Below, piece by piece: positions 1,921 through 26,793 of a stretch of 28,110 bases of DNA. The notes beneath the pieces were generated by a model, which was given only the letters and a program-made list of their open reading frames with translations, had not been told where the DNA came from and searched no databases. The stretch comes from a virus. The stretch covers positions 1 through 28,110 of IMG/VR virus record IMGVR_UViG_3300023202_000079, one strand, 5' to 3'. A program made the translations under genes and the position numbers. The first letter of the stretch is position 1. The number at the start of each line of letters is the position of its first letter.

Positions 1921-1994
1921 CGGATGTGGAGATACTTGCTCAGATAGATTGGGATTATTCTTTATTGAGATATATTAAAGAAGGTCAGAAATAA
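1917..1994 (+). CDS. Possible 25-aa microprotein
   Basis: A short open frame starts with TTG overlapping the portal stop (TTGA), with GGAGG about ten bases upstream. It ends in a TAA that overlaps the next ATG (TAATG). The peptide starts MTDVEILAQIDWDYSLLR and has no known domain. The two overlapping junctions are the main reason to think it is translated. It could equally be a coupling relay for the next gene with no function of its own. Confidence 0.35.
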   Translation: MTDVEILAQIDWDYSLLRYIKEGQK

Positions 1995-2131
1995 TGGTAC
2001 AATGGGTTGTAGATATGTTAGATAATCTTGTAAAAGAAAAGTTCACAGGAAACATTCAAATCAACATGTTCCGTGGAGGAATATCCAACGTAACAAAGAC
2101 GGAGAGTTTTAAGCCACAACCTAAAGAATAG
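1994..2131 (+). CDS. Small conserved-looking phage protein (45 aa), DUF2292-like pattern
   Basis: A 45-residue protein lies between portal and scaffold. A helical N-terminus (VVDMLDNLVKEKF) is followed by a short beta-like unit, GNIQINMFRGGISNVTKTES. That 'G-x-I-x-I-x-(F)-x-x-G-x-(I)' pattern is seen in very small phage proteins and recalls the DUF2292/YezD type, but this is by eye only. The ATG overlaps the preceding TAA. The stop is followed after a few bases by GGAGGG serving the next gene. Function unknown. Confidence 0.55.
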   Translation: MVQWVVDMLDNLVKEKFTGNIQINMFRGGISNVTKTESFKPQPKE

Positions 2132-3766: not shown

Positions 3767-4894
3767 ATGCCAAATACAACGAGTAATTCCAGTTTAAGAG
3801 CGCAGTTATGGCAAAAAGCCTTATTTTCTGACGTTCAAGACAAGCTGTTCTTCTGGAACCGAAATATGATGGGTGAAAGTGAAAATAGTATTGTGTACGT
3901 GAAGAATGACTTGAAAGAGAAAAAAGGCGGGACTATTAACATGGGTCTCGGGCAAAAAATGAGCGGTGACGGTGTAACAGGTGATGGCGAGCTTGAAGGT
4001 CAGGAAGAATCTATCAGCTACTTTGCTGATAGTGTCGCAATTGACCAGATCCGTAACGCTGTCCGCCTTACAGGTCGATTGGATGAACAACGTTCAGCTA
4101 ATAACCTTCGTGAAGATGCTAAAGAGAAAGGAAGTACATGGATCGCTGAGTATATTGAAAACCAGATTTTCATGAAACTCGGGGGTGTTGCTTCCACAGA
4201 CCTTACCCGGATTGACGGTTCAACCGTTTATTCAGGTCGTGCGGCCTGGTCGAATACAGGGAACGCTGTTCCTACTGCTGATGAAGCAGCTGGTAAAGGT
4301 GACCGTTACCTTTGTACTGATGCATCAGGTCTTGATTCGCTTCAAGCATCGGACGTTCTAACGACCACGTTCATCACACGGGCACGGGTAAAAGCAGAAC
4401 TTGCTTCACCGCGGATCCAGCCTATTCGTGTCAACGGTGCAAACCATTACGTTATGTTCGTTCACCCATGGGTGGCGGCTGACCTTAAGACAAACTCAAG
4501 TGACGTATGGGCGCAAGCTCAACGTGAAGCCCAAACTCGTGGGGACAATAACCCTATTTTCACAGGTGCTTTAGGTGTCTGGGATAATGTTATCCTTCAT
4601 GAGCATGAGTACGTTCCTACGTGCCAGGCTTCAGCGGACTTCGTTGACGGTGCTACAGCGGCCGGGGCGAGAGCTTTCCGTAACTTGCTTGTAGGACAAC
4701 AAGCGTGTTGCATGGCTAACGCGTCACCGCTTGGACAAGGTGCCGCACCTACTTTCATGGGCGAAAAGACTTTCGACTATGATAATAAAGCAGGGATGAT
4801 GGTTGGTTATATCGGTGGTATTCAGAAGCCTACCTTTAACAGCCTTGATTACGCTGTTATTGCTGTAGACAGTGGAGCCACAGACATTTCATGA
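3767..4894 (+). CDS. Major capsid protein, N4-gp56 family
   Basis: This 375-residue protein matches the N4-gp56 (DUF4043-type) capsid pattern. It starts with SLRAQLWQKALFSDVQDKLFF, followed by the loop GGTINMGLGQKMSGDGVTGDGELEG near 46-70 and DQIRNAVRLTGRLDEQRS near 87-104. The middle contains NHYVMFVHPWVAADLK and the C-terminal half contains GALGVWDNVILHEHEYVP, both typical of this HK97-fold group. Length is close to family norms. The ATG follows AGGAGTATGAATA. The codon pattern (many GGT/CGT/ACG) differs from the AT-rich accessory genes around it, as expected for a highly expressed gene. Confidence 0.9.
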   Translation: MPNTTSNSSLRAQLWQKALFSDVQDKLFFWNRNMMGESENSIVYVKNDLKEKKGGTINMGLGQKMSGDGVTGDGELEGQEESISYFADSVAIDQIRNAVRLTGRLDEQRSANNLREDAKEKGSTWIAEYIENQIFMKLGGVASTDLTRIDGSTVYSGRAAWSNTGNAVPTADEAAGKGDRYLCTDASGLDSLQASDVLTTTFITRARVKAELASPRIQPIRVNGANHYVMFVHPWVAADLKTNSSDVWAQAQREAQTRGDNNPIFTGALGVWDNVILHEHEYVPTCQASADFVDGATAAGARAFRNLLVGQQACCMANASPLGQGAAPTFMGEKTFDYDNKAGMMVGYIGGIQKPTFNSLDYAVIAVDSGATDIS

Positions 4895-4960: not shown

Positions 4961-5614
4961 ATGAAGATGTACAAATGTAAGAAATGTTCTAATGATAAGA
5001 AAAAGAATGAGTTCAAGAAAAACAAAGCATGCAAAGATGGTATTCAGTTAGTTTGTCGGGAATGTGATAAAAAAATAGCGGCAAACTATTATAAAAAGAA
5101 TCGCAAGGTTATGCTTTCTAAGTTTAAAGCCTATGCAATAAAGCATAGAGAAGAAATTAAGGAATACAGAGAAAAATACTTCTCAAGTAAACATGGAAAA
5201 ATAATGCAAATAATGCAGAACATAAGAAAAAGATGTGATGAGCCTACCAATAAACGGTTTCATCGTTATGGTGGTAGAGGAATTAAAAATCTTTTAACTT
5301 ATGATGATATTTCTATGTTATGGGAAAGAGATAAAGCCAATTCTTTGGTAAAACCTTCTTTAGACCGTATTGATGTAAATGGGAATTATGAAATAGATAA
5401 TTGTCAATTCATTGAAATGAAAGAAAATAGCAGAAAAGATTTAATTAAGTCTGTCAATCAATTAACGATAGATGGGGATCTAATTAAAACTTGGGAAGCT
5501 ATTACATATGCGGAGAAAGATGGTTTTCAAAGAGCCAATATAATAAAATGTTGCAAAGGTCACAGAAAATCTCATAAAGGATATATGTGGTCTTATAAGA
5601 AAAGGAGTGAATAA
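4961..5614 (+). CDS. Free-standing HNH homing endonuclease (YGGRGI type) with NUMOD-like C-terminus
   Basis: This is a site-specific endonuclease that spreads its own gene into alleles lacking it. The N-terminus has a four-Cys zinc unit (C6, C9, C32, C35). The HNH-family signature RYGGRGI is at about 102-108, followed by W121 and the degenerate catalytic region SLDRIDVNGNYEIDNCQF (133-150), where Asp stands where the first His of classic HNH enzymes would be. The last 50 residues (QLTIDGDLIKTWEAI...NIIKCCKGH) look like a NUMOD1-type DNA-binding helix-turn-helix. The gene is AT-rich, lies between capsid and a capsid-associated gene, and has its own promoter and hairpin, all consistent with an inserted mobile gene. 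Start: ATG after GGAGGGTACA. Confidence 0.85.
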   Translation: MKMYKCKKCSNDKKKNEFKKNKACKDGIQLVCRECDKKIAANYYKKNRKVMLSKFKAYAIKHREEIKEYREKYFSSKHGKIMQIMQNIRKRCDEPTNKRFHRYGGRGIKNLLTYDDISMLWERDKANSLVKPSLDRIDVNGNYEIDNCQFIEMKENSRKDLIKSVNQLTIDGDLIKTWEAITYAEKDGFQRANIIKCCKGHRKSHKGYMWSYKKRSE

Positions 5615-5913: not shown

Positions 5914-5920
5914 AAGGGTT

Positions 5921-5950
5921 GGGGCGGTCATTACAGGCCGCCCCTTCTTA
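5921..5950 (+). terminator. Terminator-like GC-rich hairpin after the capsid block
   Basis: GGGGCGGTC (5921-5929) pairs with GGCCGCCCC (5936-5944), giving nine pairs including one G-U, with loop ATTACA. A short pyrimidine tract TTCTTA follows. The stem is very stable but the T-run is weak, so it may act as an attenuator or an mRNA end-protecting structure rather than a complete stop. Confidence 0.7.
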
Positions 5951-13119: not shown

Positions 13120-14454
13120 ATGGCTGAACCTATAAAAGTAAGAGACAAAGAAACTGGCAAGATAATCACAATAAAACAGAAAGATTTTACAGAAGACCCC
13201 GTAGATGAATCGAGAGACTTCCCCGGAAGTGAAAGGGTGCGTCAGATACAAAGAGGACGTAGGACTCCAAGTGAAACTTTCAAGCCTGCTGAACTTCCTC
13301 AAAACAGGTTAGCCGGAGACTTTGAAATAGGTGGTGCTTTAGCAAAAGAGTTGGGTGTGGGGATGTTAGAGATTATGCAGAGGGCTGAAAGCGTCCTAGG
13401 TGGAGCTATGCAAGAGGTTTCAAGAGGCCAAGCGCCAACTTTAGAGAGGGTAAAGCAGGGCGCATCCGGAGAAATAGTTACAGAGGTAGGAGATGTTGTT
13501 AGGCAAACTTCGGAGTTTGGTGGAATCGCTAACGAAGCGTTATCTTCTCTGTTTGGTCTTACTACAACGATAACTGCCGGAAACTTCTTATCCGCCGGCC
13601 GTCTTGCTAAAGGTGCAAAGACGATCAAATCCTTTTGGGATGATTCTATAAATGCTTTGGCTGATAGAACGACACGCTTCGGGTTTAAACGCCAAGCGGA
13701 TAAATTAGCGCAAGGCGTTGATGATGTCTTTGATGGATTAAGAAAAGAAGCAGATAATTTGTATAATAAGGCAGGTCTAGCAAAAAAGCCTATTTCAGAG
13801 GCTGATGATCTGGCTAGGGTTAACGAAATTACCGGCACATTAAAGACTTCTGAAGTAAATAAGTTGAATAAGATCGCCGAGCTTGATGATGTTTCTAAGG
13901 CTAGGAGATTGGTCTCTGAGAATATTCCTCGTAAGACAAGAGGTGTTATTGATCCTAATTTAGGAAATGTTCGTAGAATAAAAACCGTTATTGGTGAATC
14001 TGTTCCTAAGAAAGTTTGGTCAGGGATAGATGATGCTACAGAAGAACAAGCATTAAGGATACAACAATATTTTGATCTTAATGATATTATTGCAAAAAAT
14101 GCGGGGGCTTTAAAAGATGACTTATTGACACTTAATGGTAAATATAAAGAATTACATGGTTTCAATAGAGTTATAAAAGGGATAACTAGGAAAAAGGGAA
14201 CAGGTGTGACGTCTACACAGATTAGGAATATAAGACAGCCTTCTTCACAAGGGGAATTATTTGAGTTGATGGATTTCCAGATAAAATATTATCCGGCAAC
14301 AAACAATATTCTGAAAGATGTCGATAGATTAAATAGAATGAATACTCTAATTAAAAATAAGAATAAAGTAATTATCGGTGCCGGAGGTCTTTTGTATTTT
14401 AATAAAAAGAGAGGTCGAGGGATAACTGATACAATAACAGAATCCTCTAACTAA
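13120..14454 (+). CDS. Candidate internal virion/ejection protein 3 (444 aa)
   Basis: A long basic protein with two moderately hydrophobic stretches: one near residues 135-160 (NEALSSLFGLTTTITAGNF) and one near the C-terminus (VIIGAGGLLYFNKKRGRG). Between them are helical, charged regions. This combination suits a protein that is packed in the capsid and crosses the host membrane on ejection. No catalytic motif is visible. It follows the 498-aa gene by nine bases with GGAG as ribosome-binding site. A membrane-associated tail-lumen protein is an alternative. Confidence 0.5.
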   Translation: MAEPIKVRDKETGKIITIKQKDFTEDPVDESRDFPGSERVRQIQRGRRTPSETFKPAELPQNRLAGDFEIGGALAKELGVGMLEIMQRAESVLGGAMQEVSRGQAPTLERVKQGASGEIVTEVGDVVRQTSEFGGIANEALSSLFGLTTTITAGNFLSAGRLAKGAKTIKSFWDDSINALADRTTRFGFKRQADKLAQGVDDVFDGLRKEADNLYNKAGLAKKPISEADDLARVNEITGTLKTSEVNKLNKIAELDDVSKARRLVSENIPRKTRGVIDPNLGNVRRIKTVIGESVPKKVWSGIDDATEEQALRIQQYFDLNDIIAKNAGALKDDLLTLNGKYKELHGFNRVIKGITRKKGTGVTSTQIRNIRQPSSQGELFELMDFQIKYYPATNNILKDVDRLNRMNTLIKNKNKVIIGAGGLLYFNKKRGRGITDTITESSN

Positions 14455-14465
14455 GGAAAAATCAA

Positions 14466-25113: not shown

Positions 25114-25313
25114 CACTCACCCCTTTTCTCGATATAATAAGATATTATTCCACCCCAAGAGAACATATAAACTATGAATAACATAAGAATAGCCGTAAAA
25201 AAACCATCTTCATTATCTCTAATTCCCTTCATTATACCTGTTGTGTTATATCCTAAAGACAAAACTCCACCGATAGCGTGCCAATACCAAAATGCATCAT
25301 GTGTTGTTATCAT
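25113..25313 (-). CDS. Small membrane protein (66 aa)
   Basis: Two likely membrane segments: AFWYWHAIGGVLSLGY near 7-22 and FFTAILMLFIVYMFSWGGII near 38-57, separated by a charged loop (MKGIRDNEDG). The C-terminus IEKRGE is basic. No family is recognised. It is one of three neighbouring membrane microproteins in the array (24495-25313). Coupled upstream by ATGA and downstream by TGATG. Confidence 0.65.
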   Translation of the reverse strand: MITTHDAFWYWHAIGGVLSLGYNTTGIMKGIRDNEDGFFTAILMLFIVYMFSWGGIISYYIEKRGE

Positions 25314-25645
25314 CTCTCCCCTTTTCTTATTGTTGACGTTATTCTCTGTAGTAATTCACCAACTGAGAATATAGGGACGCCTATACACTTTTCCTCAACC
25401 TCCCTCGCCACCTTCTCACGGATTTCGGGTTCAAGATGTTGACGGGCTATGTCGGCAATCTCCTCTGCCCTAAAATCTTTGGTATTCTTCCACCCCTTAT
25501 CATACGTGGTTTCGATGTAATTCTTTATCATCTCAACCAACTCATCTTCCTTGACTTCTTCGACTATCTCAGCCTGAAAGTCAGTAACATATTCACAAAT
25601 ATTCATTCCATCTTGATCTGTATACTTTAATCTATATTTTGCCAT
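25310..25645 (-). CDS. Hypothetical phage protein (111 aa)
   Basis: A beta-strand start (YRLKYTDQDGMNICEYVTD) is followed by charged helices (DELVEMIKNYIETTYDKGW; EIADIARQHLEPEIREKV). No family is recognised. ATG after AAAGGAGAGTGAG. It is the first protein gene downstream of the RNA cluster at 25676-26010, so it may be co-transcribed with the tRNA and re-initiates translation independently. Confidence 0.65.
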   Translation of the reverse strand: MAKYRLKYTDQDGMNICEYVTDFQAEIVEEVKEDELVEMIKNYIETTYDKGWKNTKDFRAEEIADIARQHLEPEIREKVAREVEEKCIGVPIFSVGELLQRITSTIRKGER

Positions 25646-25675
25646 CTCACTCTCCTTTGTTGTTGGTTAATTAAA

Positions 25676-25810
25676 GACTCTTGAGGCAGGAGCCATTCTC
25701 TCCTACACGCTTCGCTCGTCTCCCCTACGAAGCTACTCCCAATGCTTAACGCTGTCACAGGAGAACGCACTAATGGGTTGATATTGTCTCTCTTCCAACA
25801 CTCAAGAGCC
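25676..25810 (-). ncRNA. Structured RNA candidate C downstream of the tRNA (about 135 nt)
   Basis: The ends GGCTCTTGAG (25810-25801) and CTCAAGAGTC (25685-25676) form a ten-pair helix. One pair is G-U on the minus strand but would be A-C on the plus strand, favouring minus-strand RNA. Inside, AGGAG/CTCCT (25700-25684 region) makes a 5-bp stem with a 7-base loop, and GCTTCG/CGAAGC another hairpin. It starts one base after AATATC, like its neighbours. No long frame is present. Not matched to a known family. Confidence 0.5.
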
Positions 25811-25818
25811 TGATATTA

Positions 25819-25892
25819 TGGTCAGACAGGGAATCGAACCCCGGACCTACTCATTATGAGTGAGTTGCTCTAACCGACTGAGCTATCTGACC
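25819..25892 (-). tRNA. tRNA with CAT anticodon (Met, or Ile2 if modified)
   Basis: A full cloverleaf fits. The acceptor GGTCAGA/TCTGACC is followed by discriminator A. The D-arm is GCTC/GAGC, the anticodon stem ACTCA/TGAGT with loop CTCATAA, and the T-arm CGGGG/CCCTG with loop TTCGATT. The length is 74 bases without an encoded CCA. The anticodon CAT gives elongator Met by default, but Ile(CAT) with lysidine cannot be excluded. The loop and its surroundings resemble bacterial elongator Met. Confidence 0.93.
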
Positions 25893-25900
25893 GATATTGT

Positions 25901-26010
25901 TGGGCGGTCGGAGTTGCCGAACTTTAGCGGCACTTAAAACCGCCTAACGAGGTTATTATAAAGCCCCTGATTCGTATAGTCACCGACTTTTCAGGACTGC
26001 CATTACGCCC
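25901..26010 (-). ncRNA. Structured tRNA-like RNA candidate A upstream of the tRNA (about 110 nt)
   Basis: The 5' end GGGCG (26010-26006) pairs with CGCCC (25906-25902), followed by a single A (25901) like a discriminator base. It begins directly after AATATC and stops eight bases before the tRNA. Internal stems include CCTGA/TCAGG enclosing AGTC-GGT-GACT, and GCGGT/GCCGC with a 7-base loop containing TAA in anticodon position. A T-arm is missing, so it is not a canonical tRNA. Confidence 0.5.
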
Positions 26011-26046
26011 GATATTTTAAAGAACAATCAGTGTGGTGATTCTATT

Positions 26047-26793
26047 TCAAAACAACTGCCCCTGTGCTTGATGGCGTTCTAACCTTAGCTTAGCGGCGTT
26101 GTAGTAGTCTTTGTCTATTTCTGAACCAATGAAATGTCTTTTTGTATCCCAACAAGCTATTGCACTAGTACCACTACCAACAAAAGGATCAAATACTTTT
26201 CCATATAAAGGTGTTGTCATGTTAATAGCTATATGAGCCAACTTAAGAGGAAAAGGCGCTGGATGTTCTGTGTTATTATCTGGAGGAAACCTCCAAATTT
26301 CTGTAGAGAATTTTTTATTTGTTTTATTACACATAGGTTTCTTCTTTGTAAGCCAAAATATTATTTCAGTTGTAGGGTCAAGGTAGTTTACATTATGGTC
26401 ACATGAACCGCATCTATCCCATATTATTTGTTGATAGAAAGTTAGTCTACTATTCTGTATCCACTCAAAAGGGTGTGAACCTGATGAGTTAAATCTCCTT
26501 ATTTTATGATTGTATAGGAAACTTCCTGTAGGTCTAATAATCCTATACCCCTCATTAAGAATACTAATTTGCCATGATTTATATTCTTCTTCTTTCATAT
26601 TATCATCATAAGAATTATATTTTATATCAGCCCCAGACCATCTTCCTTTCCCTTTTGACGTATCTTTTCTTCCTCTAAAACCATTTTTATTATATGGAGG
26701 AGATGTCAATATTAAGTCAATACTGTTGTCTGGAATTTCCTTCATAGCCTCCATACAATCCCCATGTATCAGTTTAATGTCTGCACGCATCAT
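26047..26793 (-). CDS. Beta-class DNA (N4-cytosine/N6-adenine) methyltransferase (248 aa)
   Basis: Motif IV, LILTSPPYN (28-35), is near the N-terminus, and the SAM-binding motif FDPFVGSGT is near 201-209. This order, IV before I, defines the beta class (PF01555). HPAPFPLKLAHIAINM before motif I is the usual motif X region, and IGSEIDKDYYNAAKLRLE follows as normal. TSPPY alone does not settle N4C versus N6A. Length is normal for stand-alone phage methylases. Two adjacent ATGs (26793, 26790) both overlap the upstream stop; the ribosome-binding site GGGGAGG suits the second slightly better. No restriction enzyme lies nearby, so it probably protects phage DNA. Confidence 0.92.
   Translation of the reverse strand: MMRADIKLIHGDCMEAMKEIPDNSIDLILTSPPYNKNGFRGRKDTSKGKGRWSGADIKYNSYDDNMKEEEYKSWQISILNEGYRIIRPTGSFLYNHKIRRFNSSGSHPFEWIQNSRLTFYQQIIWDRCGSCDHNVNYLDPTTEIIFWLTKKKPMCNKTNKKFSTEIWRFPPDNNTEHPAPFPLKLAHIAINMTTPLYGKVFDPFVGSGTSAIACWDTKRHFIGSEIDKDYYNAAKLRLERHQAQGQLF

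What the first reader, a model, noticed from the sequence alone, without database searches (positions are those of the whole stretch)
25676..26011. Three tandem RNA elements share an AATATC leader: one tRNA and two unknowns
On the minus strand the hexamer AATATC lies immediately before the atypical element A (26010), immediately before the CAT tRNA (25892) and one base before element C (25810). The gaps are only 6-8 bases. Each element has complementary ends. This spacing looks like a phage tRNA array in which two members are not canonical tRNAs. Phage RNAs that mimic tRNA or decoy host nucleases or toxins are a reasonable hypothesis.
Basis: partly seen in the sequence, partly recalled or inferred. 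Interest (0 to 1): 0.72.

Follow-up and report, generated by a model that had tools for sequence, protein, structure and literature searches.

The report
Phage tRNA between two RNA folds
A virus of bacteria carries one ordinary transfer-RNA gene squeezed between two non-coding stretches: the downstream one very probably folds into a compact 135-base RNA of unknown function, like two puzzling small RNAs of phage T4, while the upstream one holds little more than a single strong hairpin.

Summary
The sequence observation is accurate: AATATC lies directly before element A, directly before the tRNA and one base before element C. A fourth copy inside C was missed. The CAT tRNA is real (Rfam 74.6 bits). 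A and C are not tRNAs by Rfam or ARAGORN, resemble neither the tRNA nor each other, and have no relative in any collection searched. None of the portal-related phages recovered carries the region, so no covariation test was possible. C is the better candidate: its 10-bp closing stem has pairing probability 0.8-1.0, no shuffle of 3000 matched it, it folds better on the tRNA strand, and its z-score is -2.3. In A the proposed end-pairing has probability 0.03 and is nearly chance (p 0.03-0.10). The same bases instead form a 50-nt hairpin (25899-25948), significant but folding better on the opposite strand. The closest precedent is phage T4 RNAD (119 nt) and RNAC (139 nt), stable late RNAs of unknown function packed beside T4 tRNA-Arg. 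Size and spacing match, but covariance models of both miss A and C. Tightest reading: one working tRNA, one probable orphan structured RNA or leader (C), one hairpin spacer (A). Nuclease-decoy function is untested.

The parts
25819..25892 (-). tRNA gene, anticodon CAT (elongator Met, or Ile2 if its C34 is modified to lysidine); no encoded CCA
   Evidence: ARAGORN; Rfam RF00005 74.6 bits, full length; fold z -3.87
25676..25810 (-). Element C: 135 nt, 10-bp closing stem GGCTCTTGAG/CTCAAGAGTC around several predicted hairpins; candidate small RNA or structured leader
   Evidence: closing-stem pairing probability 0.8-1.0; z -2.27 on minus, -0.60 on plus; helix score matched by 0 of 3000 shuffles; no Rfam match
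25899..25948 (.).
   Evidence: z -3.49 minus, -5.18 plus, 0 of 200 shuffles either way; the 80-nt window over it is second in the z list of 1402 on the plus strand; pairing probability about 0.95
25950..26010 (-). 5' half of element A; no evidence of structure
   Evidence: z -0.54, 56 of 200 shuffles fold as well
26011..26016 (-). AATATC before element A
25893..25898 (-). AATATC immediately before the tRNA
25812..25817 (-). AATATC between tRNA and element C
25667..25696 (-). possible 9-codon leader ORF (MAPASRVFN) overlapping the 3' side of element C; AGGAG only 3 nt from its ATG; weak
   Evidence: direct reading
26047..26793 (-). upstream gene: N6/N4 DNA methyltransferase
   Evidence: Pfam PF01555 E 4.8e-33; phrog_67
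25310..25645 (-). downstream gene, 111 aa, no family, no relative found

Best explanation
The 401-nt gap between the methyltransferase gene and the next minus-strand gene is a co-transcribed RNA-processing unit with one working phage tRNA (CAU) in the middle. Downstream, element C folds into a compact multi-branched RNA closed by a 10-bp stem. It most likely persists as a small RNA after the tRNA's 3' end is cut away, much as T4 RNAC and RNAD do beside T4 tRNA-Arg. Upstream, element A is mainly spacer plus a 50-nt hairpin next to the tRNA leader. The AATATC stretches are A/U-rich single-stranded linkers, plausible sites for endonuclease entry. Shown: the tRNA, the C stem (by prediction and shuffles), the hairpin, the hexamers. 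Inferred: co-transcription, processing, and stability of C. What C does is not known; a translation- or tRNA-related late function is the analogy-based guess. The tRNA itself most likely compensates codon usage (ATA is 40% of Ile codons, if it is Ile2) or replaces tRNAs depleted by the host.
For: tRNA. C. Region G+C 46.6%, highest of the nine gaps over 120 nt, the others 31-41%. Same-strand genes on both sides, no terminator-like site in the gap. T4 precedent with matching sizes and spacing: rnaC 139 nt, rnaD 119 nt, gaps 1 and 6 nt; both are expressed late with unknown roles (PMC9697503, PMC3014915). ATA 229 of 575 Ile codons.
Against: No homologue of A or C was found, so nothing shows conservation. 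Covariance models of RNAD and RNAC do not match A or C. C's overall z-score is moderate and C was chosen after the fact. No transcript data. The 80-nt sliding windows over C are unremarkable, because its support comes from the long-range closing stem.
Confidence: 0.45

Rival explanations
1. Element C is a cis-acting leader of the 111-aa gene that starts 30 nt downstream: alternative pairings of AGGAG (with CTCCT in its own hairpin or with TTCTCCT upstream) and a 9-codon ORF would gate expression.
For: C ends 30 nt before the start codon on the same strand; mini-ORF MAPASRVFN with AGGAG; the two alternative pairings are visible by direct reading.
Against: AGGAG-ATG spacing of 3 nt is short; no Rfam riboswitch or leader match at E <= 10; no relative of the downstream gene to compare.
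Confidence: 0.25
2. Only the tRNA is functional; A and C are spacer whose folds are chance or remnants of lost array members.
For: A's ends pair at near-chance level and with probability 0.03; 5' half of A z -0.54; no homologues anywhere searched; related phages lack the region.
Against: C's closing stem (0 of 3000 shuffles); the 50-nt hairpin (0 of 200 shuffles); high G+C of the gap.
Confidence: 0.22
3. A and C are tRNA mimics or degenerate tRNAs that bait host nucleases or toxins.
For: Position in a tRNA locus and shared AATATC; an ARAGORN mitochondrial-mode hit, Leu(taa), at 25901-25964; phage tRNAs are proposed to evade host anticodon nucleases (PMC10264068).
Against: No tRNA-model match at E <= 10; no similarity to the tRNA beyond chance, p 0.5 and 0.6; the mitochondrial-mode hit occurs in 2.4% of shuffles.
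Confidence: 0.05
4. The 50-nt hairpin in A is a DNA-level palindrome (mobile-element end, replication or recombination site) unrelated to RNA from the minus strand.
For: It folds better on the plus strand (-26.1 against -20.9 kcal/mol), where its mismatches become G-U; element A is flanked by AATATC direct repeats.
Against: Both mismatches being G-U on one strand is a coin toss; the integron attC core pattern is in the opposite orientation (direct reading); no second copy in the window or elsewhere.
Confidence: 0.12

Closest known systems
Phage T4 RNAC (species 1, 139 nt) and RNAD (species 2, 119 nt)
   Same: Two non-tRNA elements of the same sizes (135 and 114 nt here) in a phage tRNA locus, same strand, a few nt apart; absent from Rfam and missed by ARAGORN; RNAD has an equally unremarkable fold z of -0.83.
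   Different: No sequence or covariance-model match; T4 has both 3' of tRNA-Arg in an 8-tRNA cluster, here they flank a single tRNA; RNAC holds a perfect T-arm, C does not; the T4 RNAs are proven transcripts conserved across Tevenvirinae.
GOLLD and ROOL RNAs
   Same: Structured RNAs of unknown function in phages and prophages, often near tRNA islands; one GOLLD was found downstream of a Met-tRNA (PMC12286853).
   Different: Many GOLLD members exceed 800 nt and ROOL is also a large RNA; their Rfam models do not match here.
Phage-encoded tRNAs (tRNA-Met/Ile2 CAT)
   Same: The middle element is an ordinary member.
   Different: Nothing.

Membership tests
tRNA (RF00005) | match of the middle element to the tRNA covariance model | tested here: met
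   74.6 bits, 1-71/71
tRNA (RF00005) | match of elements A and C to the tRNA covariance model | tested here: not met
   no tRNA hit in A or C at E <= 10 with lax filters; ARAGORN standard, intron and relaxed modes call no tRNA for A or C on the minus strand
T4 RNAD family | match to a covariance model from 9 Tevenvirinae sequences | tested here: not met
   A aligns end to end but at 4.8 bits; chance sites elsewhere in the window score up to 8.9
T4 RNAC family | match to a covariance model from 7 Tevenvirinae sequences | tested here: not met
   best hit is the tRNA itself (10.3 bits); C unmatched
T4 RNAC/RNAD-like tRNA-locus small RNAs (by architecture) | 100-140 nt non-tRNA element directly beside a phage tRNA, same strand, gap under 10 nt | tested here: met
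T4 RNAC/RNAD-like tRNA-locus small RNAs (by architecture) | processed, stable, discrete transcript | not testable with these tools
   needs RNA-seq or Northern blot of infected cells
GOLLD / ROOL | Rfam model match | tested here: not met
tmRNA | Rfam or ARAGORN match | tested here: not met
   ARAGORN -m at default finds none; the relaxed hits at -ps60 are on the other strand and wrap around the ends of the stretch
integron attC site | RYYYAAC ... GTTRRRY core sites | tested here: not met
   the inverted repeat reads GTTRRRY ... RYYYAAC, the opposite order (direct reading of 25899-25948)

The most novel reading that the evidence does not exclude
Elements A and C are two discrete, stable phage RNAs of new families, released with the tRNA from one precursor by cleavage at a repeated AATATC signal: an independent counterpart of T4 RNAD and RNAC in a P22-portal-type phage, which would suggest that tRNA-locus companion RNAs are a general phage function.
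Probability: 0.12. Interest if true: 0.7.

Novelty: new member of a known kind. Interest (0 to 1): 0.35.

Why it matters
T4 RNAC and RNAD are stable late RNAs whose role is still unknown (PMC3014915, PMC9697503). Unrelated phages with same-sized companions beside a tRNA would give an independent handle on what such RNAs do. At present only element C is a serious candidate, and it is an orphan.

Tried and rejected
Rfam at E <= 10 on the 421-nt region: only tRNA-related matches and a sub-threshold YrlA at E 7.8. blastn of the whole region, A and C in phages and plasmids: only tRNA hits or chance. Exact 16-mers of A in IMG/VR: 7 contigs, all without the rest of A or a tRNA. The tRNA 5' half in IMG/VR: none. 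A 21-mer of A in 84,980 genomes: none. Relatives by methyltransferase, portal and major capsid protein: portal/capsid kin at 45-58% identity exist, but none holds the array or its neighbouring genes; no capsid kin in bacterial genomes, so the host is unknown. Considered and dropped: tmRNA, attC site, HDV-like and hammerhead ribozymes (read by eye; no Rfam match), retron ncRNA (no reverse transcriptase among the neighbours), A and C as duplicated tRNAs, a coaxial GGGCG + GTCGG / CCGACCGCCC model for A (-30.7 against -35.5 kcal/mol). A first sliding-window fold run timed out and was redone coarser.

Full report
What the window is. The window is a 28,110-nt IMG/VR virus record with a P22-type portal protein at 34-1920, a major head protein at 3767-4894, structural genes on the plus strand up to about 20.8 kb and small genes on the minus strand after that. 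Its nearest relatives have portals 45-58% identical and capsids 50-55% identical. They are mostly short contigs, and none holds the array. No capsid relative was found in 84,980 bacterial and archaeal genomes, so the host is unknown.

The observation. The three AATATC hexamers are exactly where stated. A fourth sits inside element C (25785-25780). AATATC is common on the minus strand of this window (35 copies against 15 on the plus strand); four in 401 nt has Poisson P of 0.0012 before allowing for the choice of hexamer. Three copies share the longer form AATATC[AG]G[GT]C, seen only once elsewhere in the window. The boundaries of A and C were set by the hexamers, so 'immediately before' is independent evidence only for the tRNA.

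The tRNA. ARAGORN and Rfam agree on a full-length tRNA with anticodon CAT at 25892-25819. No CCA is encoded. It may be elongator Met or, given that ATA makes up 229 of 575 Ile codons, Ile2; I could not decide.

Element C. The first ten and last ten bases pair with probability 0.8 to 1.0. None of 3000 dinucleotide shuffles reached the helix score with tight boundaries, and 3 of 3000 did with loose ones. The overall fold is z -2.27 on the minus strand and -0.60 on the plus strand, which favours an RNA read in the tRNA's direction. Inside the stem the model places several hairpins, one of which absorbs the fourth AATATC. C ends 30 nt before the start of the 111-aa gene, so a leader role is a live rival; a 9-codon ORF overlaps its 3' side with a poorly spaced AGGAG.

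Element A. The proposed GGGCG/CGCCC ends have pairing probability 0.03, and a helix that good occurs in 3-10% of shuffles. The CGCCC is used instead by a 50-nt hairpin, 25948-25899, with probability about 0.95, z -3.49 on the minus and -5.18 on the plus strand. The 80-nt window over it is second in the list of 1402 windows on both strands by z-score. The 5' half of A shows no structure (z -0.54). A is therefore better described as spacer plus hairpin. ARAGORN in mitochondrial mode sees a Leu(taa) shape in its 3' part, but 2.4% of shuffles give such a hit too.

Comparison. No relative of A or C was found in phage records, plasmids, IMG/VR or genomes. The best precedent is T4, where rnaD (119 nt) and rnaC (139 nt) follow tRNA-Arg at 1 and 6 nt. 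The T4 RNAs are transcribed late, and their roles are unknown (PMC9697503; PMC3014915). As a control, RNAD folds no better against shuffles than A does (z -0.83, against -1.45 for A), so a weak z does not rule A out. I built covariance models for both. RNAD's model aligns to A end to end but with a score beaten by chance sites in the same window. RNAC's model prefers the tRNA itself. So the architecture is alike and membership in those families is not met. GOLLD and ROOL, also found near phage tRNA islands (PMC12286853), do not match either.

Verdict. One ordinary tRNA, one probable structured RNA or leader (C), one hairpin-bearing spacer (A). tRNA mimicry is not supported, and the decoy hypothesis is untested. 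Without relatives or transcripts the claim of two new small RNAs cannot be raised above a minority reading.

Noticed in passing
L180:13828-13907 and about 13908-14459 (relative G007, IMGVR_UViG_3300028549_000458): A degenerate tRNA-Gly(UCC)-like gene (RF00005 33.9 bits; missed by ARAGORN) lies directly upstream of, or overlaps the start of, a Mom-family DNA modification gene (PF25680 E 2.6e-23). Direct reading gives a 7-bp acceptor GCGGAGA/TCTCCGC, U73-CCA, an 8-nt anticodon loop TGTTCCAA and an irregular T stem. From memory, Mom attaches a glycinamide-like group to adenine, so a dedicated glycyl-tRNA donor is a tempting idea. In eight other phages with Mom no tRNA-Gly is annotated within 1.2 kb, so it is not general.
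   Followed up: partly
L078:7720-7862: Directly upstream of a tRNA-Met(CAT) in another methyltransferase-bearing phage contig lies a roughly 70-nt element with paired ends and two T-arm-like hairpins (AGGGGTCGAATCCCT and GAGGTGCAAGTCCTC), not called as a tRNA by ARAGORN.
   Followed up: no
window 4121-4200 (+): Lowest folding z-score of all 80-nt windows (-7.2, from only 20 shuffles) inside the major head protein gene.
   Followed up: no
window 5916-5946 (+): GC-rich terminator-like hairpin GGGGCGGTC/GGCCGCCCC at the junction of two head-region genes.
   Followed up: no
window 1994-2131 (+): Short ORF (about 45 aa) in the AT-rich 698-nt gap after the portal gene has relatives close to the portal gene in L103 and G010, so it is probably a real small protein.
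   Followed up: no
window 4961-5614 (+): HNH endonuclease gene directly after the major head protein gene; a relative sits beside the capsid gene in G006 and a weaker one far from it in G007, which suggests a homing endonuclease.
   Followed up: no
L238-L246: T4 RNAC is 98% identical across seven Tevenvirinae, while RNAD keeps its two ends and varies in the middle; neither is in Rfam, and two Dhakavirus relatives (L242, L244) keep RNAD but show no RNAC directly after it.
   Followed up: partly
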